Assembly: GCF_000374445.1 (NCBI RefSeq)
Contig: NZ_KB894412.1
Coordinates: 62,001 to 126,000, forward strand
Reading direction: 5' to 3'
Source: Actinokineospora enzanensis DSM 44649
GTDB taxonomy: Bacteria; Actinomycetota; Actinomycetes; Mycobacteriales; Pseudonocardiaceae
DNA length: 64,000 bases
Positions 42,555 to 59,040 of this stretch are shown here, one piece after another. Each line of letters begins with the position of its first letter. The first letter of the stretch is position 1. The position numbers and the translations under genes are program-made. The notes beneath the pieces were generated by a model that was not told where the DNA came from, did not search any database, and saw nothing but the letters and a program-made list of their open reading frames with translations.

Positions 42555-43166
42555 CCACCCACGGCAGCACGTCGCCCAGCTGGGCCCGGAGGAACCGGAA
42601 CCCGAGCACCCCGACCCCGGCCGTGACCAGGCCGACCAGGGCGCGCCGCCACCAGCGCCACCGCAGTCCCCTGTGGACCGACCGGACCGACCGGAGCGCG
42701 GCGGTCGCCGCGTCGCCGAGCACGCCCGCGCCAGCGAACGCCCGTCCACCGCGACCACCGCGTGCAGCTCGGCGTCGATGTCGGCCACCCGCTGCCACTC
42801 CTGGCTCATCACGCGCAGCCGCCCGTCGTCGCCGATGCTCGCGACCCACCCCTGGGTCAACGCGATACCGCGGACGGCGCGGCCGGAGGGCAGGAACGAC
42901 AGCTGCGTGACGGGGCTGAGCAGGCCCGCGCGGACGGTCCACGATCGGACCCGACCATCCGCGCCCGCGCTGACGACCGTCTCACCCGAACCGGCCAGTG
43001 CGAGCGTCCCGCCCTGGTGCGCGTCCGTGGAGTCCTTGGGCTGTCCGGAATTTGTCTCGTACAGCCGCAGCGTCCCGTCGGCGCCACCGACCACGAATTG
43101 GTCACCTGCCGCGGTCGCGAGAATGGCTCGGATATCTGTCGGCAGCCGCGACGAAAAGGTTGCCAT
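42505..43166 (-). pseudogene. WD40-like gene with C-terminal membrane helices, broken by a frameshift
   Basis: From ATG 43166 one frame gives beta-propeller blades: GGADGTLRLYETNSG, VSAGADGRVRSWTVRAG and ASIGDDGRLRVMS (residues 1-140), then nonsense of Arg/Gly/Trp. Another frame continues from GVLGDAATAALRSVRSVHRG to two hydrophobic helices (VLPWVVTAVSAAASVVVTAV) and a TGA at 42505. Joining them by a minus-one shift near 42730 gives one sensible protein of about 220 residues. Either the gene has decayed, the base call is wrong, or a frameshift is programmed. It is divergent from the vWA operon and may be a partner of it. Confidence 0.6.
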
Positions 43167-43248: not shown

Positions 43249-43383
43249 ACCGCTCGCGGTAATCCGACCACCCATGCGGGTGGTTGCCGAGTCGGTGCGA
43301 AAACGAGTAACGACTGTCGGGGAGCGTCCGACTAGGCGTTTAGACCGGTCGAGCCGGATGCGCGTGCGTGGGTGGAGGACGCC

Positions 43384-45774
43384 TTGGAACACAAGGCCAA
43401 ACGAGTGATCGGTACACGGATGGTAGCCGCGGCGCTGGCCGCGTCCACAATGGTCGGGGCGTTACTGGTCCATTCGGGCGAACCCGCGCGCGCGGATTTC
43501 TCGACAGCTTCCGCCGCCGCTGGACAAAATCAGGACATAGAAGTGAAGCCTGCTCAGATCGTCATTCTGGTCGACGAGTCCGGCAGTATCGGCGCGGACG
43601 ACATGGTCCGGGAGCAGAACGCCGCGCGGCTCATCGCCCAAGGCGAGTTCTCCACCAGGTCGACCGTCTCGGTGGTCGGCTTCGCCAGCGACAACGGCAC
43701 CCGGTCGCCGGTGGACGCGGTGTGCCCGCAGGTGGTGGTGACCGGTCCGGCCGAGCGCGAGCACCTCGCCGAGTGCGTCGGCGGGCTGCGCAAGCGGAGC
43801 GACGGCGAGGGCAACGGCACCGACCACGCGCAGGCGCTCGCCGCCGCGCTCGGCTACCTCGGGCAGGGCTCGCCGGACGACGGGCCGAAGCTGGTGTTCC
43901 TGCTGACCGACGGCGTGCTGGACGTCACCGGCAGCCAGCAGTACGGCACCGGCAAGACCACCGCGCAGATCACCGCCGCCGCGCAGGAGGTGATCCGGAC
44001 CTCGCTGGCCACCGCCCGGCAGCGCGGGGTGCAGGTGTGGCCGCTCGGGTTCGGCAAGGTCGACGAGGCGGCGTTGCGCGCCTTCGCCGAGGGCGGCTAC
44101 CAGGGCTCGTGCGGGCCGACCGTGCCCAAGCCGAGCGCGAAGATCGTGGCCGGTTCGGCGGACGTGGGCCGGGCGATGCTGGAGTCCTACGCCAACGCCC
44201 GGTGCGCGGGCCAGGGGCCGATCGTGGTGCAGCCGCTGTCGCCTGGGTCGACGGTGGAGACCCAGGTCAGCATCCCGGCCATAGCGACCGATGGCGCGAT
44301 CACCGTCGTGAAGCAGGATGGCCGTGTCCGCGTGGACTACCTGGACCCGACCGGTGCCCCGGTGCCGAAGACGGGTTCGCTGCCCAGCGGCAGGTTCGAG
44401 GTGAGCGGCGAGAACGGCGGCGTCGAGGTGCTGCGCATCACCGATCCGACGCCGGGCACCTGGACGGTGCGCGCGACCTCGCCGCCGGAGGTGCCGCAGC
44501 AGGAGGTGCTGACCACGGTGACCTGGCTGGGCGCCGCGCAGGCGACCATCCTGGTGGACCCGCGCGCGCCCGCGAAGGGGCAGCCGGTGACGGTGTCGGT
44601 GCAGGCGCTGCTGCGCGGCGGCAAGCCGATCGCCCAGCCGGACCTGTTGCGCGGCCTGAGCTTCACCGCGGAGGCGAGCGGGAAGTCCCTGCCCGCGCAG
44701 GAGATCCCGCTGCGTGACGACGGCCAGGACCCGGACGCGGCCCCGGACGGCACCTACACCGGCCGGATGACGCTGCCCGACGACGTGACCGGCGTGATGA
44801 CCTTCCGCGGCCGGGTGACCGGCCTGGGGATCAGCGCGGCGGACGCGGTGGCGACCGTCGAGGTCTCCCCGGAGCTGCCGAAGCTGCTGGCCACGGCCAC
44901 GCTGCCGCGGCTGGGCGAGGCAGTCGCGCCGGGACGGTCGCAGGACGCCACGGTGTCGGTGTCGAACAACACCGGGCAGCGGAAGCGTCTGCGGGTGGAG
45001 GTGAACGCGGCAGGCGGCGCCCAGGTGACCATCCCGGCGGCGGACGCGGTGCACGACGTCGACCCGGGGCAGAGCACCTTCACCGTCCCGCTGGTCATCG
45101 GCGCGAACACCCCTGAGGGCTACCTCACCGGCGTGGTGCGGATCGTGAACGACGCGAACCCGAGCACGGTGGTGCACGAGAAGCCGTTCACCATCCAGGT
45201 GGCCTACCCGCCGCCGCCGTTCCCGTGGCTGACCACGATCCTGGTGACCCTGCTCGGCATCGCGGGCATCACCGCGGCGCTGTGGCTGGTGCTGCGCAGG
45301 CGTTCGCAGGAGGTGCGCGGGCTGCGGGTGCACGTGGTGCGCGGCGAGCACCGGGTGTACCTGCCCACCGAGGAGCGCCAGGCCAAGGAGTTCCGGTTCA
45401 CGGTGGACGGTCACGGCCCGGTGCCGCGGCTGGACCTGGCCACCGCGGGCGACCCGGCCGCGTACGTGCTCACCCGCTCGCGGGCCGGGCTGCGGCTGCG
45501 CACGCCCTTCGGCGAGACGGTGAGCACCCAGCTCGACGAGCCGGTGGAGGTGGGCGAGGGGCTGTCCGTGGTGGTCACCATGGACCCGGACTACGCCCCG
45601 GCCGAGCCGCCGCCGGACGACCCGTACGCCGGTTACGACCGGCCGGACCAGTTCGACACCCCGCCCGCCGGGGAGCCCACCGCGCACTTCCCCAACCAGC
45701 GCGACCACGGGTCGTGGGACGAGGCGGCCGGTCCGCCGCCGCCGAGACCGCGCCGGTCCGACCCGTACCTGTAA
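43384..45774 (+). CDS. Membrane-anchored vWA-domain protein
   Basis: A 796-residue exported protein. A leader with basic head and hydrophobic core (ALAASTMVGALLVHS) is followed by a vWA domain with the metal-site motif DESGS (Asp64-x-Ser66-x-Ser68) at about 55-230, then Ig-like beta domains (245-600), one membrane helix at about 612-638 (WLTTILVTLLGIAGITAALW) and a cytosolic tail of about 160 residues ending in Pro-rich and Asp-rich sequence. The vWA should sit outside and bind a ligand through a metal. The TTG at 43384 is taken as start because GGAGG lies five to six bases before it; GTG 43372 is the alternative. First gene of a six-gene operon. Confidence 0.83.
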   Translation: MEHKAKRVIGTRMVAAALAASTMVGALLVHSGEPARADFSTASAAAGQNQDIEVKPAQIVILVDESGSIGADDMVREQNAARLIAQGEFSTRSTVSVVGFASDNGTRSPVDAVCPQVVVTGPAEREHLAECVGGLRKRSDGEGNGTDHAQALAAALGYLGQGSPDDGPKLVFLLTDGVLDVTGSQQYGTGKTTAQITAAAQEVIRTSLATARQRGVQVWPLGFGKVDEAALRAFAEGGYQGSCGPTVPKPSAKIVAGSADVGRAMLESYANARCAGQGPIVVQPLSPGSTVETQVSIPAIATDGAITVVKQDGRVRVDYLDPTGAPVPKTGSLPSGRFEVSGENGGVEVLRITDPTPGTWTVRATSPPEVPQQEVLTTVTWLGAAQATILVDPRAPAKGQPVTVSVQALLRGGKPIAQPDLLRGLSFTAEASGKSLPAQEIPLRDDGQDPDAAPDGTYTGRMTLPDDVTGVMTFRGRVTGLGISAADAVATVEVSPELPKLLATATLPRLGEAVAPGRSQDATVSVSNNTGQRKRLRVEVNAAGGAQVTIPAADAVHDVDPGQSTFTVPLVIGANTPEGYLTGVVRIVNDANPSTVVHEKPFTIQVAYPPPPFPWLTTILVTLLGIAGITAALWLVLRRRSQEVRGLRVHVVRGEHRVYLPTEERQAKEFRFTVDGHGPVPRLDLATAGDPAAYVLTRSRAGLRLRTPFGETVSTQLDEPVEVGEGLSVVVTMDPDYAPAEPPPDDPYAGYDRPDQFDTPPAGEPTAHFPNQRDHGSWDEAAGPPPPRPRRSDPYL

Positions 45775-45819
45775 ACCCCGGACACCGCCGGTGGGGCGTT
45801 CGCCGGCAGGAGGATGACC

Positions 45820-48800
45820 ATGCAGATCTATCAGCCGATGCTCTTCGTCGGTCTCGGCGGCACCGGGTGCCGCATCGGCGCCGAGCTGGAGCGCAGGCTC
45901 CGCGAGGAGCTGTGCGGGCCGGACGGTGCCGCGCTGCGCGACCGCATGCCGGGCGAGTCGATGCTGCCCTACCAGCTGCCTGGCTGCCTGCAGTTCGTGT
46001 ACGCCGACCTCGCCGAGGACGAGTTCGGCCACGTGGAGAGCCGGGTCGTGCCGGACCGGGCGTACCTCCCCGCGGCCGAGCGCACCTACACGATGGTGCG
46101 CGAGCTGGTCCCGCCCTACGACACCTACCCGGAGGTGGCGCGCAGCCTGCGGCTGAGCGCGGCGCCGGTGGTGGAGGAGTGGATCCCGCCCGCGCAGGAC
46201 GAGCCGCGGGTGGGCCCGCTGGCCAAGGGCGCGGGGCAGCTGCCCACGGTGGGCCGGGCGGCGCTGTTCGAGACCTTCCGCGGCGGGCTGGCCCCGGCGC
46301 GGGACTCGCTGTTCAAGGCGGTCGGCAGCATCAGCAACTCGGGCGGCCAGCTGGCCCAGCTCGGCGGGCGGCTGCGCGACTCGGTGGACGTGTTCGTGGC
46401 GTTCTCGGTGGCGGGCGGCACCGGCGCGGGCCTGTTCTTCGACTACCTGCACCTGGTCGGCGACGTGCTCAACGACCAGGGCTACAAGGCGCGGATCTTC
46501 CCGCTGGTGCTGATGCCCTCGGCGTTCCAGGACGGGCTCGGCGGCGGACGGGCCGCGGAGCTGAACGCGGCGCGCGCGCTGCTGGACCTGTTCCGGCTGG
46601 TGGACGACCAGAACTCGCAGGTGGCCGGTACGGCGCTGGACCGGCGCGGCATCGACGGCGCGCTGTCGGTGCGCTACCCGAGCGGCGCGGAGATCCGGCT
46701 GCGCGCGTCCACCGTGCAGACGGCGTTCCTGTTCAGCCTGTCCGCGGGCATGCACCGCGACGACCTGCACCGCTCGGTGGTGTCGCTGCTGCTGTCGCTG
46801 ATCGGCACGGACATGCCCGCGGAGACCGAGTCCGGGGTCTACCTGGACCGCAACTTCCAGTCGTTCGCCGACAGTTTCATCAACAGCGCCAGCACCCGCG
46901 GCGTGCCCGCGGCGACCGGCATCGGCAAGCGCGGCGTGTCCACCAGCGCGGTCGCGTCCATGACCGTGCCGGTGGAGGACCTGGCCGACATCGTCAGCTC
47001 CCGGCTGCTCGCGGACGCGGTCACCGAGATGGCCAACCCGACCGGCATGGCCGGGGAGAACAACCGCGAGCTGGTGTTCCGCGCGTTCCAGGACGCCAAC
47101 ATCGACCCGCTGCTGCAGCGCGCGCCGCTGCCGATCAACTCGCCGAACGCGGTGGACGGCGGCGACGCGATCCTGGCGATGCTCAACACCCGCAAGCGCA
47201 CCATGGAGGCCAGCCTGGCCACCCAGGAGCAGGAGCTGGCCCGGTCGGTGCCGGACCTGGCCGGTCAGTTCAACCCGATGCGCGCGATCGCCATGATGAT
47301 CGGCGAGCTCGGCGTGTTCCGGCTGGGCCGGGTGTTCATGGGCGAGTCGGGCCTGAGCGACCCGGTCAGCAACACCGGGTTCGTGAAGCTGGTGGAGAGC
47401 AGGCGCGGCGAGCCCGCCGCGCCGCCCGGCGTGACCGTGGGCGGTCCGGCGCCGGACGTGCGGAAGACCAAGTGGTACAAGAAGATCCGCTTCTCCGACC
47501 CGGTGGTGCGCGCGTCGGTACGCCGCCAGGACGAGTGGTACGCGTGGCGCGCGCAGCGGGCCTGGCACGCGGCGTGGAACGAACAGGCGCCGCGCTGGGA
47601 CCGCAAGCTGCGCACGGTGGAGAAGGAGATCGTGGCGCTGCTGGAGGGGTTCCGGGAGCACGCGCGCACCGAGGACGCCCGGTTCACCCGCCGTTCCAAG
47701 GCGCTCTACGAGCCCCGCGTCGGTGTGTCCTACCTGCTGCCGCGGCAGGGTCAGCTGCCCTCCTTCTACAGCGCGGTGTTCCGCAGGCTGGTGTCGGTCT
47801 ACGCCGACCAGAACCGGTTGCACGCCACCGCGACCCCCGCCCAGGTGGTCGACGCGATCATCGGCGTGAACGGCTGGAACGCCGCGTTCGCCGAGTTCCA
47901 GGAGCACGGCGTGGTGGAGGGCCCCGGCCGCGCGGTGGCCGTGGTGCGCGGGCTGGTCAAGACCGAGGTCATGCGGCTGTTCCGGTACACCGACGACATG
48001 AACCAGCCGCTGCTGGCGAGCCTGCACGATCTGCTGGCCGCGGCCGCGGGCCGCACCGGCACCCGGGGCTCGGTCAACGACGACGACCTGGCCCAGTTCC
48101 GGGAGAAGCTGGCTGGCCTGGTGCCCGGCGGGTTCGCGCCCGCGGGCCGGGGCCGGTTGAAGATCCTGCTGTCCTACCCGTCGCCCGCGGGCAAGCGGGA
48201 CGCGGAACTGGAGAAGTTCCTGCGGCAGGAGGTGAACCTGCCGCGCGACGTGGACACCATCCCGGAGTTCCGGCCGATCGACGCCGAGTCGATCGCGGTG
48301 GTGCTGTTCCGGTCCTCGATGGGCATCACCGAGGTGCCGGAGGTGCGGCGGATCCTGGCGCACTGGGCGGACGCGGTGGCCGACAACCGCAAGAACGACT
48401 TCCTACAGTGGCGGCAGCGCACCGGCTACCGGTTCGGCTACCTGGCCACCAGCCAGGAGGACCGGACCCGGATCCTGCACCACATCCTGTGCGCGGCCTG
48501 GAACGGCTACCTGGAGTGCTCCGGCGACCTGGTCGCGCCCAAGGCGGTCAACGTCTATCTCGGCGACTCCGAGATCAGCATGCGGCTGGACCTGGTCGCC
48601 TACGGCAGGCTGTCCAGCTGGGCCAGCCTGATCTCCGAGTACGAGCGGTGGGTGCTGGCCGACAGCGAGCAGATCCGGCAGGACTTCGGCGACCGGCTGA
48701 TGGACACCCGGCCCAACGGGCTCAGCGGCGACCTGACGCCGCCCGCGCCGGTGTTCCGCGCGCTGATGGATCTCGCCGCGCACCAGGTGGAGGAGACCTC

Positions 48801-48963
48801 GAAGCTGCTGGCCGAGAACAAGGCGTCCGGCCGCCGCAAGCTGGAGGCGGTGCACGAGTTCTGGACGGTGACCTTCCGGGACGCGCTGCAGCTGCGCTTC
48901 CGCGGCGCCGAGGACGCCCACCAGGAGAACCTGGAGGAGCTCTACGAGTGGGCGCTGCGATGA
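45820..48963 (+). CDS. Tubulin/FtsZ-superfamily GTPase (FtsZ-like, Tubulin_2 type)
   Basis: A 1047-residue protein. It opens IYQPMLFVGLGGTGCRIG, the nucleotide-binding first loop of the tubulin fold, and carries the tubulin G-box as AGGTGAG (198-204, in FVAFSVAGGTGAGLFFDYL read in two parts FVAFSV and AGGTGAG). The remaining 750 residues are a long extension of mostly helical character with no membrane segment. This is the pattern of the large FtsZ-like families (FtsZl-1) that comparative genomics tied to vWA genes and membrane remodelling. It may form GTP-driven filaments on the membrane. The start ATG 45820 lies six bases after AGGAGG; the ATG at 45814 abuts it and is rejected. Overlaps the next gene by ATGA. 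Confidence 0.85.
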   Translation: MQIYQPMLFVGLGGTGCRIGAELERRLREELCGPDGAALRDRMPGESMLPYQLPGCLQFVYADLAEDEFGHVESRVVPDRAYLPAAERTYTMVRELVPPYDTYPEVARSLRLSAAPVVEEWIPPAQDEPRVGPLAKGAGQLPTVGRAALFETFRGGLAPARDSLFKAVGSISNSGGQLAQLGGRLRDSVDVFVAFSVAGGTGAGLFFDYLHLVGDVLNDQGYKARIFPLVLMPSAFQDGLGGGRAAELNAARALLDLFRLVDDQNSQVAGTALDRRGIDGALSVRYPSGAEIRLRASTVQTAFLFSLSAGMHRDDLHRSVVSLLLSLIGTDMPAETESGVYLDRNFQSFADSFINSASTRGVPAATGIGKRGVSTSAVASMTVPVEDLADIVSSRLLADAVTEMANPTGMAGENNRELVFRAFQDANIDPLLQRAPLPINSPNAVDGGDAILAMLNTRKRTMEASLATQEQELARSVPDLAGQFNPMRAIAMMIGELGVFRLGRVFMGESGLSDPVSNTGFVKLVESRRGEPAAPPGVTVGGPAPDVRKTKWYKKIRFSDPVVRASVRRQDEWYAWRAQRAWHAAWNEQAPRWDRKLRTVEKEIVALLEGFREHARTEDARFTRRSKALYEPRVGVSYLLPRQGQLPSFYSAVFRRLVSVYADQNRLHATATPAQVVDAIIGVNGWNAAFAEFQEHGVVEGPGRAVAVVRGLVKTEVMRLFRYTDDMNQPLLASLHDLLAAAAGRTGTRGSVNDDDLAQFREKLAGLVPGGFAPAGRGRLKILLSYPSPAGKRDAELEKFLRQEVNLPRDVDTIPEFRPIDAESIAVVLFRSSMGITEVPEVRRILAHWADAVADNRKNDFLQWRQRTGYRFGYLATSQEDRTRILHHILCAAWNGYLECSGDLVAPKAVNVYLGDSEISMRLDLVAYGRLSSWASLISEYERWVLADSEQIRQDFGDRLMDTRPNGLSGDLTPPAPVFRALMDLAAHQVEETSKLLAENKASGRRKLEAVHEFWTVTFRDALQLRFRGAEDAHQENLEELYEWALR

Positions 48964-51158
48964 ACCGGTACGGCGGATCGGGCGGGGCGGGCACGGTGCG
49001 GGTGCTGGACATCCGCGAGCCGGGCCAGGACCTGTCCTTCCTGGACCGGTTGAACCGGGACACCGCGCACCGGGCGGGCCTGGCGGGCCGAGTCGTGGTG
49101 GTGGACAACACCGCCACGCTGCTGGCCAACCACGAGCGCTACCAGCGGCTGGTGTCGCTCGGCCACGTCGGCGCGGTGGTGTGCGTGGCGGTCGGCCCGC
49201 TGGCCGCGGACGGCGGCACCCGGCTGGAGCAGTCCGCGGCGCTGGGCCAGGACGCGGTGACGGTGTGGGTGGGCGACGAGTGGGGCAGCCGCTGGGCGGG
49301 CGGGTCGGACCGGCCGCGTCCGGTCACCGACGGGCCGCCCGGCCTGGACGACCTGCTGGCCGCGTTGCGCGCGGCGGAGGTGTTCGACGCGGTCTGCGCG
49401 GCGGTGCGGGAAGTGCCGCACCAGACGGTGAGCCCGGGGGTGGAGGTGGTGCATCCGTCGGTGGGTTCCGAGGAGTTACGGGCGTTGCGCGCGACGGCGT
49501 TGTCCGAGCTGGTCGACCACAGCCTGACCGACCGCGCGTGGCCCGCGCCGCCCGCGTCCGCGCGCGGGAACACCGCCCCGGAGACGGGCAGGGACACGGT
49601 CGTGTCGGGTTCCCCGCTGGCGATGAGCGCTCAACGGGCCCGGTACGCGGCCGAGTCGTTGATGACCGCGGCGATGATGGCCCCCGGTCTGCTCGGGCTG
49701 CTGCGCGGCCCCCGCGTCGACCCGGGACCGGCGCTGCGGGCGTTCGAGGAGCACGCCGCGCAGGCCGACGACGCGCTCGCGTTGATCGACCGGCAGGCCG
49801 GGGGCGGGGACGTGTCGGCGCAGCTGGTCGCGTTGGGCGTGCCACCCGCCGACCCGCCCGCGCACCACGCGATCGCCACCGGCCTGGACAACCTGCTGGG
49901 CGACGAGCTGCGCGCGGGGCGGTCGCTGCGTGACCTGTCGGTGCGGCTGCGCCAGATGTCCAACGAGAGCGTGCCCGAGAGCGGTGAGACGGCCCGCGCC
50001 GAGCTTTCCGGGCTCCGCCAGGGGTTGCGGTCGCTGCGCTCGCCCACGCCGCCCCGGCTGTGGGACCTGCCCGCCATACCGTTGATCGTGGCGGCGGCGC
50101 TGACCACGACGGCGGTGGGCTGGCTGACCGGCAGCGTGATCGCGAGCAGCGTGCTGACCGGCGTGTGGCTGGCGATGCTGGCGTTGATGGCCGTGCGCCT
50201 GCCGGACAAGGCCGGACGCAGACCGGAGGCGGCGTCGGCGTTGGGCGCCGCGGCGGCGACAGCGGCGGCCGGGACGATCGTGGCGACGCTGCTGCCCGCG
50301 TCCCCGCTGCCGCCCGCGGCCGCCGCCGTGCTCGCGGCCGTGTGCCTGGTGCTCGCGCTCGGCGCGGTGCCGCTGGCCTGGCGGACGGTGCTGGCCCGCT
50401 GGGTGAGCGAGCTGCGCCCGGCGGCGGTCCGGCAGGCGGTGACCCGCGCCGAGTCCATAGTGGACGTCCGGGTGCTCGGCCACGTGCGCGGCCTGCACCA
50501 CACCCGGCGGCTGTCCGCCGCCTGCCTGCTGCTCGCCTCCGGCACCGCCGACCTGGCCGACCTCTACCACGACCGGGCGGGCGACGCCCCGCGCAGGCAC
50601 GGCTCGGCCACCGAACTGTCCGCGGTGCTGCGCGCGGACCTGGTGTCGCTGGTCCGGCACGCGTTGCGGGACTACCTGACCGACATCGGCGGCGACACGC
50701 TGCTCGACACCGACACCGACAACCTGGTCGCCAACGCCAGCCGGGACCTGACCGCGTACCACGGCTTCCTGGACACGCACGGCGTGCACGCGCGGCCACC
50801 GATGGTCGACGACGAAGGCGGCCGGGAGCGGCTCAGCCGCTCGCTGTGGCAGCGCTCCGAGGCGGGCCGCCGGGTGCTGCGCGGCGACGGCCGCGAGGAG
50901 CTGGTGCAGCTGTGCCGCACCGGCGACACCCGCTCGATCAACCTCGACTGGTCCCGAACCCGGGTGCTGCGGTTCGCGCCGCGCCTGGTGCAGGACATCG
51001 TGCTGGGTCCGGGCAGCGGCGTCGACGTGATCACCACCGGGGCCGACCTGACCGGCGTGCTCCGGCTGATGCCGCTGGTCCCCGGGCGCGTCACGCACCG
51101 GCACCCCACGCACACCGAGGCAGGCGCCGAGGGCGCCACAGGAGGGAGCGCCCCGTGA
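48960..51158 (+). CDS. Large protein with a central membrane domain, unknown function
   Basis: A 732-residue protein of no known family. Residues 1-150 look like a Rossmann-like or receiver-type fold (VRVLDIREPGQDLSFLDRLN, VVVVDNTATLL). Residues 150-370 are helical. About four membrane helices span 373-473 (IPLIVAAALTTTAVGWLTG, then VLTGVWLAMLALMAV and two Ala-rich helices). The C-terminal 260 residues are soluble and helical. It starts inside the ATGA at the end of the tubulin-like gene and ends with GTGA into the next. It is likely the membrane scaffold of the system. Confidence 0.75.
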   Translation: MNRYGGSGGAGTVRVLDIREPGQDLSFLDRLNRDTAHRAGLAGRVVVVDNTATLLANHERYQRLVSLGHVGAVVCVAVGPLAADGGTRLEQSAALGQDAVTVWVGDEWGSRWAGGSDRPRPVTDGPPGLDDLLAALRAAEVFDAVCAAVREVPHQTVSPGVEVVHPSVGSEELRALRATALSELVDHSLTDRAWPAPPASARGNTAPETGRDTVVSGSPLAMSAQRARYAAESLMTAAMMAPGLLGLLRGPRVDPGPALRAFEEHAAQADDALALIDRQAGGGDVSAQLVALGVPPADPPAHHAIATGLDNLLGDELRAGRSLRDLSVRLRQMSNESVPESGETARAELSGLRQGLRSLRSPTPPRLWDLPAIPLIVAAALTTTAVGWLTGSVIASSVLTGVWLAMLALMAVRLPDKAGRRPEAASALGAAAATAAAGTIVATLLPASPLPPAAAAVLAAVCLVLALGAVPLAWRTVLARWVSELRPAAVRQAVTRAESIVDVRVLGHVRGLHHTRRLSAACLLLASGTADLADLYHDRAGDAPRRHGSATELSAVLRADLVSLVRHALRDYLTDIGGDTLLDTDTDNLVANASRDLTAYHGFLDTHGVHARPPMVDDEGGRERLSRSLWQRSEAGRRVLRGDGREELVQLCRTGDTRSINLDWSRTRVLRFAPRLVQDIVLGPGSGVDVITTGADLTGVLRLMPLVPGRVTHRHPTHTEAGAEGATGGSAP

Positions 51159-52093
51159 CCGGCATGTCGGGACTGATCAAGCTGGTCGGCCGGGCCCCGA
51201 CCGGCCACACCCTCACCTGGGAGGTGAAGGTCGACACCGCGCTGGAGCACCCCGGCTCCGGCCTGCGCAGCCACCGGGTGCGCACCGCGGACGGGCTCGT
51301 CTACGTGCAGCGCACCCCGCGCGGCGCGACCACCGACCGGGCCCGCGCCCTGCTGGACAACGAGATCCGCGCGCTGGCCCGGCTCACCCACGCCTTCCCG
51401 GACGACCCGGTCCCGTTCCCGCGCCTGGTCGGCTACGACATGGACAGCGCCGATCCGTGGGCGCTGGTGGCCGAGTACCGGGGCAAGCCCGCCCGCGCCG
51501 TGGTCGGCGGCCTGCTCGACCGCACCGCCTTCACCGCGGGCCTGTTCGACGCGGTCGCGCACGCCACCGCGGTGGGTGTGAGCCTGGAACGGCTGGACCT
51601 GGACGCCCTGTACGTGGAGGGCACCGCGGTCCAGGTGGTGGTGTTCGAGCACTCGGCGTTGTTCGACGAGCCGCGGCCGGACCGGCGCGGGTTCGTCAGC
51701 GGCCAGCAGGACGTGCTCGACGCGGGCAAGGTGCTCTACGAGGTGTACACCGGCACCCGCGCCCAGTCCGACCGGCCCGACCTCGCGGGCCTGTCCGCGC
51801 TGCGCCCGTTGGCCGACGTGTTCCACCGGGAGGGCGAGCGGCCGGACCCGCGCGACGTGGTGGAGCGGTTGGGCCAGTCGGCGCGGCGTCCGGCGGTGCC
51901 GCAGTCCATTCTGGACGGTCGGGCCGCGTTCGACCTGGCCCACGCGCGCAAGCAGCCGGTCGAGCAGCCGCCGCCCCCGCCGGAGCCGCCCGCACCGCCC
52001 GACAACCGGACCGCCCGGGTCGTCATCGCCGTCTCCCTGGCGGTGTTCGCGATCGCGGTGGCGGTCCTGCTGATCCTCATCGGAGGCAAGTGA
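51155..52093 (+). CDS. Membrane-tethered protein-kinase-fold pseudokinase
   Basis: A 312-residue protein. Residues 12-245 follow a protein kinase fold: a glycine-poor beta1-2, VYVQRTPRG (50-56) where the VAIK Lys should be, and an alphaC Glu at NEIRAL (Glu70). The catalytic loop region (141-155, LERLDLDALYV) has no HRD, and the DFG place reads VFEHS (163-167). So the ATP-binding Lys and both catalytic Asp are missing: a pseudokinase. A Pro-rich linker (272-283) and one C-terminal membrane helix (287-309) follow. GTG 51155 overlaps the upstream stop (GTGA) and has GGAGGG nearby. It may bind a partner or nucleotide as a regulator. Confidence 0.8.
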   Translation: MTGMSGLIKLVGRAPTGHTLTWEVKVDTALEHPGSGLRSHRVRTADGLVYVQRTPRGATTDRARALLDNEIRALARLTHAFPDDPVPFPRLVGYDMDSADPWALVAEYRGKPARAVVGGLLDRTAFTAGLFDAVAHATAVGVSLERLDLDALYVEGTAVQVVVFEHSALFDEPRPDRRGFVSGQQDVLDAGKVLYEVYTGTRAQSDRPDLAGLSALRPLADVFHREGERPDPRDVVERLGQSARRPAVPQSILDGRAAFDLAHARKQPVEQPPPPPEPPAPPDNRTARVVIAVSLAVFAIAVAVLLILIGGK

Positions 52094-53193
52094 TGGCCGC
52101 GCCCCCCGAGACCGCCGCCCGCGTGGTCACCTGTCCGATCTGCCTCGACCGGTTCCCGTGGGACGAGACCGAGCCGCTGGAGTACGACTCCCGCGAGGGC
52201 CGGTACAAGCCGGTGGAGCAGACCGAGTTCAGCAACCCGGACGTGCTCGCGGACGTGCGCAGGCTCTGGTACATCCGCTGCCCCAACACCTCCGACCCGG
52301 ACTCGCCCAACCACTACCTGCCGGTGGGCTACGCCGACTACCCCGACCCGCTGGTGATCGCGCTGATCGGCAGACCGCGCTCGGGCAAGACCCACCTCGT
52401 GGTGGCGATGATCCGGGAGCTGCTCAACGGCTCCGCCGGGAGCGGACTGCGCGCGAAGGCCCTGGACGTCCACCAGAACAACACCTTCCGGCGCGACTTC
52501 CTCGACCCGTTCGAGCACGGCACCCGGCTCGCCGGTACCCGCAACGACCTCGGCACGTACCTGCAGTGGCTGGTGCTGGAGTGCGGTGGGGTGAAACGGC
52601 CGCTGGTGTTCTTCGACATCGCGGGCGAGGACTACCGCAACCAGGTGTACAACAGCCGCAGCACCCGGTTCCTGGTCAACGCGGGCGCGGTGCTGTTCGT
52701 CGAGGACGCCGCGCACGTGCTGCACTCGGCGGCCGAGCAGCAGGACCTGGCGTTCGACGGCTCGCTGGCCAACCCGTTGGGCGCCAACGCCACCAACGAG
52801 TACGTGCAGGAGGCCAAGAACCGGCTGCGCGGCGGCGGCGTCGACCTGCCGTGCGCGGTGGCGGTGACCAAGTCGGACCGCCTGCGCTACGTCAGCCCGG
52901 CCGACCGCTGGCTGCGCCACGACCCCGGCGGCGGCCTGTCGGCCACCGACCTGCTCAGCGAGACCAGGGACGTGTACGCGTTGTTCCACGGCAACCGGGC
53001 GGCGGACATGATGGAGCTCTACCACCACTTCCGCCGCTGCACCATGCACTTCGTGTCCGCCACCGGCGGCGCCGTCTCGGAGAACACGTTCCCGGCAGGC
53101 ATGCGGCCGATGCGCGTGCTGGCGCCGCTGCTCGCCCTGTTCGCCATGGCCGGGCTGCCGGTCGGGCCCGACGCCGGACTGGTGGGCAGATGA
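52093..53193 (+). CDS. P-loop GTPase with N-terminal zinc knuckle
   Basis: A 366-residue soluble NTPase. CPIC at 14-17 with Cys63 suggests a small zinc-binding head. The P-loop is GRPRSGKT (93-100), Walker B or G3 is FFDIAGED (Asp175, Gly178), and G4 is TKSD (259-262). This is a TRAFAC-type GTPase of the sort found next to tubulin-like and GAP1-type proteins in actinomycete conflict systems. It follows the pseudokinase by a TGATG overlap and precedes the last gene by ATGA, so it is within one coupled unit. Confidence 0.82.
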   Translation: MAAPPETAARVVTCPICLDRFPWDETEPLEYDSREGRYKPVEQTEFSNPDVLADVRRLWYIRCPNTSDPDSPNHYLPVGYADYPDPLVIALIGRPRSGKTHLVVAMIRELLNGSAGSGLRAKALDVHQNNTFRRDFLDPFEHGTRLAGTRNDLGTYLQWLVLECGGVKRPLVFFDIAGEDYRNQVYNSRSTRFLVNAGAVLFVEDAAHVLHSAAEQQDLAFDGSLANPLGANATNEYVQEAKNRLRGGGVDLPCAVAVTKSDRLRYVSPADRWLRHDPGGGLSATDLLSETRDVYALFHGNRAADMMELYHHFRRCTMHFVSATGGAVSENTFPAGMRPMRVLAPLLALFAMAGLPVGPDAGLVGR

Positions 53194-54578
53194 CCACGCA
53201 GATGCACGACGTGCTGCCGTTCGGGCAGATCCTGTTCGGCCTGAAGAACGGCGTCCAGCCGATCGCCACCACCCTGGAGCTGTCCGACCACGAGGCCCAG
53301 CGGTGGGACGCGCGGCTGCGCCCGTTCAACCGGCTCACGCCCACCTACCAGGGCAACCAGTACCGCACCCCGCGCGAGGCCTTCTCCTACTTCGAGTTCC
53401 CCGGCGGCCGGGCCGCGCTGCTGGCCCGGTTCAACGCGGGCGACCTCGGCCGCAACTTCTCGCACGCCATCGTCGGCGCCGCGCCGGACCTGGCCGAGTG
53501 GGCGATGTACGTGCCCAAGTGGCACGGCTGGCTGCGGGCCGAGAACCAGACGTTCCAGGAGGTGCAGACCCCGGACTGGAAGGAGCTGCGGTCCGCGTGG
53601 CAGCGCGAGGTGCTCGGCACGGCCGAGGAGGACAACCCCCGGCTCATCCACAGCCTGGTGGCCGGCATGCTCGCCGAGCCCGACCGCTGCTTCACCGTCG
53701 TCGGCGAGCAGGACACGCTCCGGCTGTTGACGCTGGTCCGGGAGATCCTGCGCCCGATCTTCGCCACTCCCTACGAGCGGTTCGCGTGGACGTTCTCCAC
53801 CTACGAGCACACCGACACGTCCCCGGAGGCCTACCCCAACCACTCGGGATCGCCCCGGTTGTGGTGCATACCGGATTTCCCCTCATCCGGTGAGACCGAG
53901 CGCGTGCGGATCAGGTGGGACGGCGACACCCCGGACAGCCGGTACTCGCGCGCGGCCGACCAGCTGATTGAGACGTACTTCGCCGCAGCGCCGGAGCGCT
54001 ACCGAAACGCGCTCCTGCAACGGTTCCAGCAGGAGGACGACCGCACCACTCGAATCGCGAAGCTGCTCGACGTGTCCCCTGTGGTCACTCAGCCTGTGGC
54101 GCCCGCTCCCCCGGTTCAGGTGCCTGTGCCCCAGCCGGTTCAGTCCGGCTACGGTCTCGGGTATTCCGATCCGATGCCCGCATATCAGCCGACACAGCAG
54201 ATCCCGCAGCCACCGCCGACCCCCGAGCCCGCGCCCGTGGCCGCGCCGAATGCCGTGGGTTCGCAGGGATCTTCCTTGCCGGCGCGCGAAGTCGCGGACC
54301 TGCACAAGACGGTGCACGAGGTGCGTCACCTGGTCACCCGGCTGAACCACCGGGCGGAATACACGTTCTACGCGGTCATCGCCCTGACCGTGGTCACCTT
54401 CCTGCTCGCGGTCTTCACCGTCGCGTTCCGACCCGACACGCCCGTGACCCCGGACCCGATCGTCACCACCTCCATAGTCACGGTGCCCGCGGCGCCCACC
54501 ACGACCACGAACCCGCCGCAGAACCACGAACCCTCGATCCAACGAAACCCGGCCCAGCCCACCACTGTGCCCAGGTGA
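53190..54578 (+). CDS. GTPase-associated membrane protein, GAP1-like
   Basis: A 462-residue protein. Residues 1-290 form a soluble alpha/beta domain (LPFGQILFGLKNGVQPIATT, FSYFEFPGG, MYVPKWHGWLRAEN) that I do not recognise for certain. It resembles the N-terminal part of GTPase-associated (GAP1) proteins, by memory only. Residues 295-375 are Pro/Gln-rich and likely disordered. A helical stretch (VADLHKTVHEVRHLVTRL) leads into a single membrane helix (YAVIALTVVTFLLAVFTVAF, near 393-412) and a Thr/Pro-rich tail. ATG 53190 overlaps the GTPase stop by four bases, so this ends the six-gene operon. No terminator hairpin was found after it. Confidence 0.7.
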   Translation: MTTQMHDVLPFGQILFGLKNGVQPIATTLELSDHEAQRWDARLRPFNRLTPTYQGNQYRTPREAFSYFEFPGGRAALLARFNAGDLGRNFSHAIVGAAPDLAEWAMYVPKWHGWLRAENQTFQEVQTPDWKELRSAWQREVLGTAEEDNPRLIHSLVAGMLAEPDRCFTVVGEQDTLRLLTLVREILRPIFATPYERFAWTFSTYEHTDTSPEAYPNHSGSPRLWCIPDFPSSGETERVRIRWDGDTPDSRYSRAADQLIETYFAAAPERYRNALLQRFQQEDDRTTRIAKLLDVSPVVTQPVAPAPPVQVPVPQPVQSGYGLGYSDPMPAYQPTQQIPQPPPTPEPAPVAAPNAVGSQGSSLPAREVADLHKTVHEVRHLVTRLNHRAEYTFYAVIALTVVTFLLAVFTVAFRPDTPVTPDPIVTTSIVTVPAAPTTTTNPPQNHEPSIQRNPAQPTTVPR

Positions 54579-54757: not shown

Positions 54758-56026
54758 GTGCACCGTCGAGTGTGGAAGTGCCTGGTCATCGTCGTCGTGG
54801 CCGCCCTGTTCTCCGCTTCGTGCGGGACCGGGGCGGCACAGGGGAGGATCACCCTCACCGTCGCGACGTTCTCCGAGTTCGGCTACGACGAGCTGATACC
54901 GGAGTACGAGGCGGCGCACCCGGGGATCCGGGTCGTGCAGGAGCGCACCGGCCAGGGCGGCCCGTACCACGACCAGCTGTTCACCCGCCTGGGCGCGGGT
55001 TCCGGGCTGGGCGACGTGGTGGCCGTCGAGGAGGGGCACCTGTCCGATGTGCTCGCCCAGGCTCGGTTGTTCAACGACCTGACCGAGATCGGGCCCGCCG
55101 ACGTCAAGGCGGACCGGTGGCTGGACTGGAAGTACCAGGCGGGCCGGGCCAGGAACGGCGCGTTGATCGGCTATGGCACGGACATCGGGCCACTGGCCAT
55201 GTGCTACCGCCGCGACCTGCTCGACGCCGCCGGGCTGCCCAGCGACCCGGAGTCGGTGAAGTCCCTGTTCGCCACCTGGGACAGCTACTTCGCGGCGGGC
55301 GACACGTTCCACGCGCGCACCGGCAAGGCCTGGTTCGACTCGGACTCGCAGATCTTCAACGCGATGCAGAACCAGTTGCCCACCGGCTACTTCGACACCG
55401 ACGACCGGCTCGTCATCGACACCGAACCGGCCATCCGACACAACTGGGACGCGGTGACGGCGGCGGGCGCGCGTGGACAGTCGGCCGGGTTGACCGCGTT
55501 CTCCACCGACTGGGATGCCGGGTTCGCGGCCGGGGCGTTCGCCACCAAGACGTGTCCATCGTGGATGCTCGGCGTGATCAAGGCCAAGGCGGGCGCGGAC
55601 AACGCAGGCAAGTGGGCGGTCACCGACGCGTTCCCCGGCGGCGGGGGCAACTGGGGCGGCTCGTACCTCGCCGTGCCGAAGCAGTCCAAGCACCCGCGCG
55701 AGGCCGCCGAGCTGGCCGCCTGGCTGACCGCGCCGCAACAGCAGATCCGCGCGTTCGCCAAGACCGGCAACTTCCCGAGCCAGACGGCGGCACTCGACTC
55801 GCCGGAGCTGCTGGGCACGGTCGACGCGTACTTCGGCGGCACGCGAACCGGCGAGCTGTTCGCCGCGCGGGCTCGGCAGGTCGGCAAGGCGCAGTACAAG
55901 GGGCCCGGGGACGGGCGCATCCAGGAGAACGTGATGGCGCCCGCGCTGCACGCGGTCGAGCAGGGCGAGCCGCCGGAGCAGGGCTGGCAGCAGGCGGTGG
56001 AGGGCGCGCGGAGAATCGCCCGGTGA
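54758..56026 (+). CDS. cebE: Cellobiose/cello-oligosaccharide-binding lipoprotein (CebE-like)
   Basis: A 422-residue sugar ABC binding protein. The signal ends in FSASC (lipobox Cys22). The fold follows as ITLTVATFSEFGYDELIPEY, with GGNWGGSYLAVPKQSKHP near the sugar-site end as in cluster-B sugar binders. The order binding protein, two permeases and a GH1 beta-glucosidase and the CebR box make cellobiose the likely ligand. GTG 54758 follows GAGAGG. No ATPase gene lies in the operon, as in Streptomyces, where a shared MsiK serves. Confidence 0.9.
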   Translation: MHRRVWKCLVIVVVAALFSASCGTGAAQGRITLTVATFSEFGYDELIPEYEAAHPGIRVVQERTGQGGPYHDQLFTRLGAGSGLGDVVAVEEGHLSDVLAQARLFNDLTEIGPADVKADRWLDWKYQAGRARNGALIGYGTDIGPLAMCYRRDLLDAAGLPSDPESVKSLFATWDSYFAAGDTFHARTGKAWFDSDSQIFNAMQNQLPTGYFDTDDRLVIDTEPAIRHNWDAVTAAGARGQSAGLTAFSTDWDAGFAAGAFATKTCPSWMLGVIKAKAGADNAGKWAVTDAFPGGGGNWGGSYLAVPKQSKHPREAAELAAWLTAPQQQIRAFAKTGNFPSQTAALDSPELLGTVDAYFGGTRTGELFAARARQVGKAQYKGPGDGRIQENVMAPALHAVEQGEPPEQGWQQAVEGARRIAR

Positions 56027-56910
56027 CCATGTCGGTGAGCATGAGGTCGCGCGCACCGTACCTGTTCATCCTCCCGTTCTTCGCGGTGTTCGGGTTCGTC
56101 GTCGTGTATCCGCTGATATACAACGGCTACCTCGCGCTGTTCGACTGGGACCTGCTCGACGACTCGCCCGCGTTCGTCGGCTTCGGCAACTACGCGGCAC
56201 TGCTCACCGACGAGCGGTTCGGCCGGGCGGTGGTGAACACGCTCAGCCTGGTCGCGTTGACGACGGTGCCGCAGCTGGTGATCGCGATCGGGCTGGCCGC
56301 GCTGCTGGACACGCGCCGGATCGCGTCCCGGTGGGAGATCGGCATCCTGCTGCCCTGCGCGATGAGCCTGGTGGCCGTGGCGATCGTCTTCGCGAACCTG
56401 TTCGGGCCGAGGTTCGGGCTGGTCAACGACGCGCTGACAGCGGTGGGGCTGGACCCGGTGGACTGGCAGGCGGACCGGTTCGCCGCGCACCTGGCCATCG
56501 CGTCCATGGTCGACTGGCGGTGGACCGGCTACAACGCGCTGATCGTGCTCGCCGCGCTCCGGGCGGTACCACGCGAACCGCACGAGGCGGCACTGCTCGA
56601 CGGGGCGGGTCCGATGCGGCGGTTCACGAGTGTCACCCTGCCGTTACTGCGGCCGACGCTGGTGTTCGTGGCCGTGACCTCGACCGTCGGCGGGCTGCAG
56701 ATCTTCACCGAACCGAAACTGTTCGACATGTTGCCCGGGGCGAACGGGGGCGCGCGCGGGCAGTTCCAGACCGTGACCCTGTACCTGTACCAGGCGGCTT
56801 TCGAGGACCGGCACCTCGGCTACGCGGCCGCCATCGCCTGCGTGCTGTTCGTCGTCATCGGCCTGCTGGCCTGGGTGAACTACCGGGTCACCCGGGCGCT
56901 GGCCCGGTGA
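56023..56910 (+). CDS. cebF: Cellobiose ABC transporter permease (CebF-like)
   Basis: A 295-residue six-helix permease (APYLFILPFFAVFGFVVVYP at the start) with the EAA loop PREPHEAALLDGAGPMRRFT that contacts the ATPase. It starts within GTGA at the end of cebE and ends in GTGA with cebG, so the three are coupled. Alternative start ATG 56029. Confidence 0.9.
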   Translation: MTMSVSMRSRAPYLFILPFFAVFGFVVVYPLIYNGYLALFDWDLLDDSPAFVGFGNYAALLTDERFGRAVVNTLSLVALTTVPQLVIAIGLAALLDTRRIASRWEIGILLPCAMSLVAVAIVFANLFGPRFGLVNDALTAVGLDPVDWQADRFAAHLAIASMVDWRWTGYNALIVLAALRAVPREPHEAALLDGAGPMRRFTSVTLPLLRPTLVFVAVTSTVGGLQIFTEPKLFDMLPGANGGARGQFQTVTLYLYQAAFEDRHLGYAAAIACVLFVVIGLLAWVNYRVTRALAR

Positions 56911-57704
56911 GCGGCCGAAGACGCTGGGCGGGCTGGGTGCTCGCCGGGTTCGTGGCCGGTTCGCTGTTCCCGTTCTACTGGGCGTTCACGGTCGGCAGCC
57001 GGGAACCGGGCGCACGGGTGTCGACACCGCTCCCAGGCGGTCACTTCCTGGCCAACGCCCGGCGGGTATTCGACACCGTGCCGTTCTGGCAGGCCCTCGG
57101 CAACAGCGTCCTGGTGTCCGCGGCCGTAGCCGCGTCCACGGTCGTGTTCGCCACTCTCGCCGGGTTCGCGTTCGCCCGATTGCGCTTCCCCGGCCGGGAC
57201 CGACTGTTCGGCATCGTGGTCGCGGGCCTGGCGGTGCCGACCCAACTGGGAATCATCCCCCTCTATCGGGCGATGGCGGATCTCGGCTGGGCAGGCGGGT
57301 TGCAGGCGGTGATCGTCCCGAACCTGGTGACCGCCCTCGGCGTCTTCCTGATGCGCCAGTACACCGTCTCGGCGGTACCGGCCGAACTGGTCGAGGCGGC
57401 CCGGGTGGACGGTTGCTCACCCTGGGGCGCCTTCCGCCACGTCTGCGTGCCCGCCGTCGGCCCGGCGGCGGCGTTCCTCGGCGTGTTCACGTTCATGACC
57501 AGCTGGAACGACTTCCTGTGGCCGCTGGTCGCGCTCGACGCGGACCACCCGACCATCCCACTCGTGCTGGAACGCTTGCAATCCGGGCACTATGTGGACT
57601 ATTCATTGGTACTCGCCGGGACCACCCTGGCGACGATCCCGGTACTGATCGTGTTCGTCGCGTTCGGTCGCCGGATCACGACCGGGATCGGGCAGCTACC
57701 GTGA
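56907..57704 (+). CDS. cebG: Cellobiose ABC transporter permease (CebG-like)
   Basis: A 265-residue permease, with EAA loop VPAELVEAARVDGCSPWGAF, and helices from AGWVLAGFVAGSLFPFYWAF on. It is the second channel subunit. GTG 56907 overlaps the cebF stop. Ten bases separate it from the glucosidase gene. Confidence 0.9.
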   Translation: MSGRRRWAGWVLAGFVAGSLFPFYWAFTVGSREPGARVSTPLPGGHFLANARRVFDTVPFWQALGNSVLVSAAVAASTVVFATLAGFAFARLRFPGRDRLFGIVVAGLAVPTQLGIIPLYRAMADLGWAGGLQAVIVPNLVTALGVFLMRQYTVSAVPAELVEAARVDGCSPWGAFRHVCVPAVGPAAAFLGVFTFMTSWNDFLWPLVALDADHPTIPLVLERLQSGHYVDYSLVLAGTTLATIPVLIVFVAFGRRITTGIGQLP

Positions 57705-57714
57705 GGGGGTAGCC

Positions 57715-59040
57715 GTGTCCACGTTCCCATCCGGCTTCCTGTGGGGCACGGCCACCTCGGCCTACCAGATCGAGGGCGCCACCACGGCCGATGGTCGCGG
57801 TATGTCCATCTGGGACACTTTCGCGGACGAACCCGGCCGGGTCGCCGACGGCCACACCGGCGATCCGGCGGCCGACCACTACCACCGGATGCCCGCCGAT
57901 GTGGCCCTGATGTCCGAGCTCGGGCTGAACGCCTACCGCTTCTCCCTGGCCTGGCCGCGCGTCTGCCCGGACGGCGTGACGGTGAACCCGGCCGGGCTGG
58001 ACTTCTACGACCGGTTGGTGGACGAACTGTTGACGCACGGCATCACGCCGTCCGCGACGCTCTACCACTGGGATCTTCCACAGCCGTTGGAGGATCGCGG
58101 CGGCTGGCCGGAACGTGAGACCGCCTATCGTTTCGCCGACTACGCCGGGGTGGTCGCGGACCGATTAGCCGACCGCGTTCCGCTGTGGACGACCGTGAAC
58201 GAGCCGTGGTGCGCGGCGTTTCTTGGCTATGCTTCCGGGGTTCACGCACCCGGCCGCCGTGATCCGGGGGCGGCTGTGGCTGCGGCGCATCATCTGTTGC
58301 TGGGGCATGGGCTTGCCGTGCAGGCCATCCGATCCCGTGCTGCCACCCGGGTCGGCATCACACTGAACCTGTTCGGGGTCTTCGGTGACGCGGACGCGGT
58401 TCGACGGATAGACGGGTTGCAGAATCGACTCTTCCTGGATCCGCTGTTTCGTGGTTTTTACCCTGCGGATGTGCTGGATGACCTACTGCCGTACGCGATT
58501 CCGGTGCGCGATGGGGATGTGGAGATCATCGGGGCGCCGATGGACCTGCTGGGGGTGAACTTCTATCGTGACCACGCGGTGTCGTCCGCGTGGGATGGTT
58601 CGCCGAACCTGGACTGGCCGGGGAGCGAGCATATCGGGCATGTTCGGCGAGGGTTGCCGGTCACGGATCTCGGGTGGGAGATCCGGGCGGCCGGGTTGAC
58701 GGAGTTGTTGGTGCGGTTGGCTTCGGAGTACCCGACCGTTCCGTTGTATGTGCATGAGAATGGGGCTTGCTTCGCCGATGTCGTGATGGACGGCGCGGTG
58801 CATGATCATGCTCGGTTGGCGTATCTGTCGGATCATGTCCGGGCGGCTCATACGGCGTTGGCCGCGGGGGTGGATCTTCGGGGGTACTTCGCGTGGTCCT
58901 TGTTGGACAACTTCGAGTGGTCCGAGGGGTATGGGCGGCGGTTCGGGTTGGTGCATGTGGACTTCGAGACCCAACGCCGGATCGTGAAGGCGAGTGGGGA
59001 GTGGTATTCGGAGGTGGCTCGGGGGAACCGGGTGCCGTAG
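57715..59040 (+). CDS. bglC: GH1 beta-glucosidase (BglC-like)
   Basis: A 441-residue cytosolic glycoside hydrolase family 1 enzyme. FLWGTATSAYQIEGA opens it, TVNEPW gives the acid/base Glu163 and YVHENG the nucleophile Glu348, with WSLLDNFEWSEGY at the end for the aglycone site. It splits imported cellobiose into glucose. GTG 57715 has GAGGGGGTA before it. It is the last gene of the ceb operon. The IS remnant begins right after its stop. Codons near its 3' end drift to more T/A than in the rest of the operon. Confidence 0.92.
   Translation: MSTFPSGFLWGTATSAYQIEGATTADGRGMSIWDTFADEPGRVADGHTGDPAADHYHRMPADVALMSELGLNAYRFSLAWPRVCPDGVTVNPAGLDFYDRLVDELLTHGITPSATLYHWDLPQPLEDRGGWPERETAYRFADYAGVVADRLADRVPLWTTVNEPWCAAFLGYASGVHAPGRRDPGAAVAAAHHLLLGHGLAVQAIRSRAATRVGITLNLFGVFGDADAVRRIDGLQNRLFLDPLFRGFYPADVLDDLLPYAIPVRDGDVEIIGAPMDLLGVNFYRDHAVSSAWDGSPNLDWPGSEHIGHVRRGLPVTDLGWEIRAAGLTELLVRLASEYPTVPLYVHENGACFADVVMDGAVHDHARLAYLSDHVRAAHTALAAGVDLRGYFAWSLLDNFEWSEGYGRRFGLVHVDFETQRRIVKASGEWYSEVARGNRVP

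What the first reader, a model, noticed from the sequence alone, without database searches (positions are those of the whole stretch)
43384..54578. Six-gene vWA / tubulin-like / pseudokinase / GTPase membrane machine
All internal junctions after the first are overlaps (ATGA, GTGA, TGATG, ATGA), so the six products should be made together. Four are membrane-bound, one is tubulin-like with AGGTGAG, one is a GTPase and one a dead kinase. Large FtsZ-like proteins next to vWA genes have been predicted to remodel membranes, and GTPase/GAP1-type sets have been predicted as NTP-dependent conflict systems. This set combines both, and at least one member (48960-51158) has no known family.
Basis: partly seen in the sequence, partly recalled or inferred. 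Interest (0 to 1): 0.88.

Follow-up and report, generated by a model that had tools for sequence, protein, structure and literature searches.

The report
Membrane tubulin-GTPase operon with DENN-like regulator
Six overlapping bacterial genes appear to build a membrane-bound GTPase switch of a kind already predicted to act in conflicts such as phage defence, and its last protein is predicted to fold like the DENN proteins that control GTPases in our own cells.

The parts
43372..45774 (+). Gene 1: signal/anchor segment, vWA domain (residues 63-241 counted from 43372), Ig-like region, transmembrane helix near 619-637 (counted from 43384), then a C-terminal tail
   Evidence: Pfam VWA E 2e-8; hydropathy; start by homology to L014; DxSxS in the first 200 residues of 73 of 75 family members
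45814..48963 (+). Gene 2: large tubulin/FtsZ-like protein (Tubulin_2 at 10-403, long C-terminal region of unknown fold); AGGAGG just before it
   Evidence: PF13809 E 1.7e-62; GLGG[TS]G in 80 of 81 and [AG]GGTG[ASCT]G in 78 of 81 family members; junction sequence
48960..51158 (+). Gene 3: membrane protein, alpha/beta N-terminal part (about 10-186), helical bundle and four hydrophobic helices (372-472), small beta-rich C-terminal part (about 586-714); possible degenerate tubulin fold split by the membrane insert
51155..52093 (+). Gene 4: kinase-fold protein without HRD or DFG, C-terminal transmembrane anchor (289-307)
   Evidence: Pkinase in 11 of 24 aligned sequences; solved kinases E 4.5e-15; motif counts and hydropathy; profile in 73 of 80 loci
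52093..53193 (+). Gene 5: DO-GTPase with Cys-bearing N-terminus, P-loop GRPRSGKT, Walker B D-x-x-G-E, TKSD
   Evidence: PF19993/PF19975; P-loop in 74 of 74, Walker B Glu in 73 of 74, KxD in 74 of 74
53190..54578 (+). Gene 6: diverged GAP1-like protein; residues about 6-290 predicted longin-DENN-like; Pro-rich linker, transmembrane helix 395-413, tail
42798..43166 (-). First ~125 codons of a divergently placed WD40-KAP NTPase gene that is full length next to the operon in L014 and L017; truncated here
   Evidence: tblastn 41% to L017 residues 1-125, E 1.6e-18; full-length WD40 + KAP_NTPase in L014 and L017

Best explanation
The operon encodes one membrane-anchored GTPase-switch machine, a variant of the tubulin-bearing GTPase-centric (DO-GTPase/GAP1) conflict systems. 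Shown by sequence: tubulin-like protein, DO-GTPase, kinase-fold protein without catalytic motifs, vWA protein, conserved order. Supported by profile and predicted fold: gene 6 is a GAP1 relative whose N-terminal half is longin-DENN-like. Inferred mechanism: the vWA protein senses an envelope or extracellular change; the tubulin-like protein, held at the membrane by gene 3, forms or loses an assembly; this is read by the DO-GTPase docked on the membrane pseudokinase; the DENN-like part of gene 6 exchanges or hydrolyses its nucleotide; the switch then releases the changeable C-terminal module of gene 6 (pore-type SLATT in some relatives, membrane tail in the window) or partner effectors (PycTM, TIR) to damage or arrest the infected or stressed cell.
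For: Conserved order and overlaps; genes 4 and 5 in one protein in 36 of 80 loci; DO-GTPase motifs and similarity to GTPases at 7 of 9 true GAP1-N2 loci (E 1e-29 to 1.3e-13); gene 6 against nine GAP1-N2 proteins pooled prob 90-92, score 58-62, versus at most 0.3 and 19.6 for reversed, 30 shuffled and unrelated profiles; DENN, longin or TagF entries fill the top 12 VIA rows; SLATT_1 in 7 of 69 gene-6 proteins, one carries a second GTPase; 15 C-terminal classes among 66 tails at BLAST E 1e-4; PycTM and cyclase relatives together in 25 of 80 loci, TIR relatives in 6; gene 6 is the least conserved (34% when gene 2 is 82%); patchy presence, 4 of 15 other same-genus genomes.
Against: No Pfam GAP1-N2 match in any of 69 gene-6 proteins. 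The GAP1 signal falls to prob 70 (22 Pseudonocardiales-like rows), 25 (34 Streptomycetaceae) and 0.7 (5 rows of the window clade) when groups are tested apart. Foldseek support for DENN is weak (1 of 524 matches at E <= 0.001). At 2 of 9 GAP1-N2 loci the gene 5 profile found no GTPase (L104, L105). In 24 loci the same gene follows the operon, unlike a mobile island. Most tails (53 of 66) show one hydrophobic segment and no named effector was found in them. PADLOC gives the six window proteins only weak P-loop hits to the GTPase. No experimental evidence of defence.
Confidence: 0.6

Rival explanations
1. Membrane-remodelling or envelope-maintenance machine: the tubulin-like protein forms filaments at the membrane and the GTPase, pseudokinase and vWA protein steer vesiculation, cell-wall or developmental events; no conflict role.
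For: Prediction of Makarova & Koonin 2010 for FtsZl1 operons; four membrane proteins; the same following gene in 24 loci; longin-DENN proteins serve membrane traffic in eukaryotes.
Against: Varying C-terminal modules, SLATT, PycTM, TIR and weakly STAND-like neighbours and patchy presence fit conflict systems better; FtsZl1 lacks elements of known filaments according to its authors, who still think filaments likely.
Confidence: 0.25
2. Stress or nutrient signalling relay in which the vWA protein reports an extracellular ligand through the pseudokinase-GTPase pair to expression or transport, with gene 6 as a membrane adaptor; neighbouring effector genes are incidental.
For: In the window and L014 the operon is followed by the same stretch, which reads as a sugar-binding protein, two permeases and a glycosidase (by eye); 53 of 66 gene-6 tails have a single hydrophobic segment.
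Against: That following gene was not grouped with the gene after the operon of any other of the 80 loci; effector-type neighbours differ by lineage but recur.
Confidence: 0.12
3. Chance neighbours: six unrelated genes in one transcription unit.
For: None beyond the lack of experiments.
Against: Order kept between relatives at 25-82% protein identity and in 73 of 73 adequate loci for the GTPase; fusion of genes 4 and 5.
Confidence: 0.02

Closest known systems
Actinobacterial tubulin theme of the GAP1-N2 GTPase-centric systems (Kaur et al. 2020, PMC7159879; section 27 and passages read)
   Same: DO-GTPase, GAP1-like protein downstream of it, single tubulin with long C-terminal region, membrane-bound vWA protein, SLATT at the C-terminus of some GAP1-like relatives
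   Different: GAP1-like protein not matched by the GAP1-N2 model; no HRDC in the seven window proteins scanned; a catalytically dead kinase joined to the GTPase in 36 of 80 loci and a family-less membrane protein, neither named for the tubulin theme in the passages read (dead kinases are named there for the MoxR-vWA systems, an active kinase for another GAP1-N2 theme)
FtsZl1-vWA-kinase-GTPase operons (Makarova & Koonin 2010, PMC2875224; abstract, section 6 and passages read)
   Same: Large FtsZ-like protein, vWA protein, kinase-family gene, diverged GTPase (sometimes with a Cys-rich domain), membrane proteins
   Different: Kinase is dead here; a DENN-like/GAP1-like sixth gene and varying effector tails are not described in what was read
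Longin-DENN GTPase regulators of eukaryotes (DENND1A/B, DENND10, FLCN, C9orf72; Zhang et al. 2012, PMC3521125, abstract and passages read)
   Same: Predicted fold of gene 6 residues 6-289; sits beside a TRAFAC GTPase
   Different: About 10% identity, bacterial, joined to a membrane tail or effector, partner is a DO-GTPase not a Rab; activity untested
Pycsar (nucleotide cyclase + PycTM; system recalled)
   Same: 25 of 80 loci carry both a cyclase relative and a PycTM relative near the operon
   Different: Not present in the window; joined to a tubulin/DO-GTPase operon and a weakly STAND-like gene; PADLOC recognised only the PycTM part in L045

Membership tests
GTPase-centric GAP1-N2 system (Kaur et al. 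2020) | DO-GTPase with conserved Walker B glutamate | tested here: met
   PF19993/PF19975 above cut-off; Glu in 73 of 74
GTPase-centric GAP1-N2 system (Kaur et al. 2020) | Zinc ribbon(s) at the GTPase N-terminus (present in 60% of DO-GTPases by that paper) | tested here: inconclusive
   CxxC plus a further Cys within 100 residues before the P-loop in 71 of 74; metal binding and full ligand set not tested
GTPase-centric GAP1-N2 system (Kaur et al. 2020) | GAP1 protein downstream of the GTPase, GAP1-N2 and M parts | tested here: inconclusive
   Pfam GAP1-N2 misses all 69; pooled profile-profile prob 90-92 with clean controls; group tests 70, 25 and 0.7
GTPase-centric GAP1-N2 system (Kaur et al. 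2020) | GAP1-C domain | not tested
   no separate GAP1-C comparison was run
GTPase-centric GAP1-N2 system (Kaur et al. 2020) | FNIII-repeat protein | tested here: inconclusive
   gene 1 has only weak hits (FlgD_ig 0.013, choice_anch_X 1.3e-4)
GTPase-centric GAP1-N2 system (Kaur et al. 2020) | Second FNIII protein fused to HRDC (actinobacterial tubulin theme) | tested here: not met
   no HRDC in the seven window proteins scanned; genes farther out in the window were not scanned
GTPase-centric GAP1-N2 system (Kaur et al. 2020) | Tubulin-domain gene with helical C-terminal region | tested here: inconclusive
   tubulin domain met: Tubulin_2 at 10-403 of 1049; the fold of the C-terminal part was not predicted
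FtsZl1 operon (Makarova & Koonin 2010) | FtsZ-like + vWA + kinase-family + diverged GTPase genes together | tested here: met
   that Tubulin_2 equals FtsZl1 is recalled, not tested
Longin-DENN module | longin domain followed by DENN domain fold | tested here: inconclusive
   [not shown]
Longin-DENN module | GEF or GAP activity on a GTPase | not testable with these tools
   needs biochemistry
Tubulin/FtsZ superfamily (gene 3) | tubulin fold | tested here: inconclusive
   [not shown]
Tubulin/FtsZ superfamily (gene 3) | glycine-rich nucleotide loops | tested here: not met
   none seen after the first or fourth strand in the 15 of 74 rows printed, one of them (L038) blank at the first strand
Protein kinase (gene 4) | HRD and DFG catalytic motifs | tested here: not met
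   0 of 73 DFG, 4 of 73 HRD, window copy has neither

The most novel reading that the evidence does not exclude
The GAP1 family of bacterial DO-GTPase systems is a prokaryotic longin-DENN module, so the DENN type of GTPase control predates or lies outside eukaryotes and here arms changeable effector tails; and gene 3 is a membrane-embedded, nucleotide-free tubulin relative, split by a transmembrane insert, that pairs with the tubulin-like gene 2 to hold or cap its assemblies at the membrane.
Probability: 0.35. Interest if true: 0.86.

Novelty: new variant of a known kind. Interest (0 to 1): 0.64.

Why it matters
DO-GTPase/GAP1 systems were predicted from sequence in 2020; my paper searches turned up no test of GAP1 activity (open-licence PMC papers only). 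A DENN-like fold turns 'GTPase-associated protein' into a directly testable claim: gene 6 should change nucleotide exchange or hydrolysis on gene 5. Zhang et al. 2012 present the DENN module as assembled by accretion early in eukaryotic evolution (passages), so a bacterial version would bear on the origin of Rab/Rag/Arf control. The operon also offers a compact set for asking whether tubulin-like proteins gate bacterial immunity.

Tried and rejected
Gene 3 as sugar transporter (Sugar_tr): rejected, hit in 1 of 35 sequences, hydrophobic stretch only. Gene 3 homology to tubulin by profile: no signal; uninformative because gene 2 versus FtsZ, a relation that Tubulin_2 implies, gave only prob 3.6. 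Sequence search of PDB with genes 2, 3 and 6: nothing credible (gene 2 best E 0.0085, aminotransferases; gene 3 best 0.24; gene 6 best 0.014). Viral fold library for gene 3: no match at E <= 0.001. PADLOC on the window proteins: weak P-loop hits to the GTPase, and a WD40-type hit for the truncated neighbour. The locus L099 has Tubulin_2, a GTPase and GAP1-N2, but the profiles of genes 3, 4 and 6 found nothing there beyond noise. The cyclase family of the Streptomyces upstream gene was not named by Pfam but its profile hits solved cyclases (E 4.9e-6). Gene 4/5 fusions: 37 flagged, 36 upheld by the gene 4 profile, L032 dropped. Gene 6: 73 candidates (window included), 69 pass, L037, L043, L072 and L086 fail, L093 has no + gene there; this check is partly circular, since the profile was built from 66 of the same set. 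The profiles of genes 3 and 4 used were likewise built from part of the loci searched. Of the 37 tail pairs without BLAST match, 16 are trivial (3 without a tail, 13 with the cut L056) and were set aside. Phylum search scored only two first-look candidates per listed genome. Large antisense frames such as 43462-48363 (-) look like G+C-rich artefacts and were not followed.
Full report
What is there. The six frames and their junctions are as described, with the first start better placed at GTG 43372 by comparison with L014. Pfam places protein 1 in vWA (E 2e-8), protein 2 in Tubulin_2 (E 1.7e-62) and protein 5 in DO-GTPase2/1 (E 6.2e-8, 1.9e-6); proteins 4 and 6 hit nothing, and protein 3 gets a hydrophobic-stretch match to Sugar_tr seen in 1 of 35 aligned sequences. 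Hydropathy gives clear membrane segments in proteins 1, 3, 4 and 6, and borderline ones in 2 and 5.

Recurrence. A profile of protein 2 brought 80 loci from named genomes, the best 80 of 90 relatives. Of these, 74 show a vWA gene within five genes upstream; the other 6 contigs start within 240 bases of the tubulin gene. In 73 loci a GTPase follows within four genes; in the other 7 the held sequence ends within 3.5 kb of the tubulin gene. A gene longer than 650 codons directly follows the tubulin gene in 73 of 80; the gene 3 profile is found in 78 of 80 (missing in two contigs of 3.4 kb) and the gene 4 profile in 73 of 80. With the window's own proteins as tblastn queries at E <= 1e-4 the counts are 74, 80, 50, 39, 73 and 22 of 80 for genes 1 to 6, so proteins 3, 4 and 6 diverge fast while position is kept. 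Against the nearest relative, protein identities are 62, 82, 55, 49, 69 and 34% for genes 1 to 6. Genes 4 and 5 are one protein in 36 of 80 loci. In six loci two extra genes lie between vWA and tubulin.

Distribution. 4 of 15 other same-genus genomes and 1 of 21 same-family genomes have protein 2 at E <= 1e-10; none of 24 others of the order do. 3 of 396 genomes sampled over the phylum, the window's own included, have it at 1e-20. In the tree Actinokineospora falls in three places (window with NBRC 105648; A. auranticolor with A. inagensis; A. pegani with Saccharopolyspora), which suggests transfer or several ancient copies (quick method, some long branches). In 24 loci, on the other hand, the same gene follows the operon, so the Streptomyces copies look settled.

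Protein 4. The window copy alone hits nothing, but 11 of 24 aligned sequences hit Pkinase and the joint profile reaches solved kinases (E 4.5e-15). DFG is absent from 73 of 73 and HRD present in 4 of 73, all Nocardiopsis. The alpha-C glutamate (69 of 73) and the alpha-F aspartate (72 of 73) remain (motif names recalled). It is best read as a pseudokinase with a C-terminal membrane anchor.

Protein 5. All 74 sequences keep the P-loop and the K-x-D motif, 73 of 74 the Walker B glutamate that Kaur et al. name as typical of DO-GTPases. Its profile finds GTPase frames at 7 of the 9 loci taken as true GAP1-N2 (E 1e-29 to 1.3e-13), not at L104 and L105.

The tail of protein 6. Of 69 proteins, 66 have 40 residues or more beyond residue 330; BLAST at E 1e-4 sorts these tails into 15 classes, 7 of them single. 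The tails of the window clade are short (85 to 143 residues) and say little. Seven of 69 proteins carry SLATT_1; in L018, L020 and L023 a DUF4231/SLATT_3 region and a SLATT_1 lie in tandem at the C-terminus. In L041 the tail is a second DO-GTPase. In the window it is a proline-rich linker, one membrane helix and a tail. Of 316 pairs whose tubulins are at least 70% identical, 37 show no tail match at BLAST E <= 1; 16 of these are trivial, which leaves 21 (counted from the printed list).

Neighbours. In Streptomyces a PycTM relative (28 loci by phmmer; Pfam E 1.1e-12 tested on L045) and a cyclase relative (29 loci by phmmer, one of them an Amycolatopsis; joint profile against solved cyclases E 4.9e-6) occur, both in 25 loci, all 25 also with a gene of weak nSTAND3 similarity. 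TIR relatives lie one or two genes after gene 6 in 6 Lentzea, Amycolatopsis and Actinocrispum loci, with a MoxR-type AAA gene; Pfam was run on those of L018 only. Two Acrocarpospora loci have HSP70 and dynamin-family genes; in L024 one of the two dynamins is near LeoA. L014 and L017 have a divergent WD40-KAP NTPase; in the window only its first ~125 codons remain. Several of these (TIR, SLATT, HSP70) are components that Kaur et al. list for such systems.

Known or new. Kaur et al. 2020 and Makarova & Koonin 2010 cover the kind. In the main text of Kaur et al. neither longin nor DENN occurs (0 and 0). Among the papers listed by my searches none holds DO-GTPase together with DENN or longin (10 listed of 51; 40 listed of 3,853; alike). 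The lists are capped, the library holds only open-licence PMC papers, and supplements were not open to me, so the absence is limited to that.

Verdict. A real, conserved, already-predicted kind of system in a diverged form. The DENN-like reading of protein 6 is the most useful result because one enzyme assay can test it.

Noticed in passing
window 42798-43166 (-): Truncated start of a WD40-KAP NTPase gene; the full gene lies divergent to the operon in L014 and L017, and the flanking hydrolase-like gene is shared with L014, so several kb differ at this spot.
   Followed up: partly
L045:2331-7451; both genes in 25 of 80 loci: Nucleotide cyclase relative, weakly STAND-like gene, a 464-aa gene without Pfam hit and a PycTM relative directly upstream of the tubulin operon: a Pycsar-like module joined to it.
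   Followed up: partly
L018:15300-18399 and five more loci: TIR gene, MoxR-type AAA gene and an unknown 326-aa gene just after gene 6.
   Followed up: partly
L024:2318-7606, L075: HSP70 with beta-propeller and two dynamin-family genes (one LeoA-like) upstream of the operon.
   Followed up: no
L041:15071-16984: Gene 6 fused to a second DO-GTPase.
   Followed up: partly
L033, L034, L035, L037, L038, L039: Two extra genes (the first DUF4407 in L035) inserted between the vWA and tubulin genes.
   Followed up: no
G000:C1:660143-660544 (L013, L100): The same genome holds a true GAP1-N2 gene with DO-GTPase-like frames and an HSP70 gene nearby, like the HSP70 theme of Kaur et al..
   Followed up: partly
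[not shown]
   Followed up: no
window 54758-59040: Genes that read as a sugar-binding protein, two ABC permeases and a glycosidase follow the operon and are shared with L014 (functions by eye, not searched).
   Followed up: no
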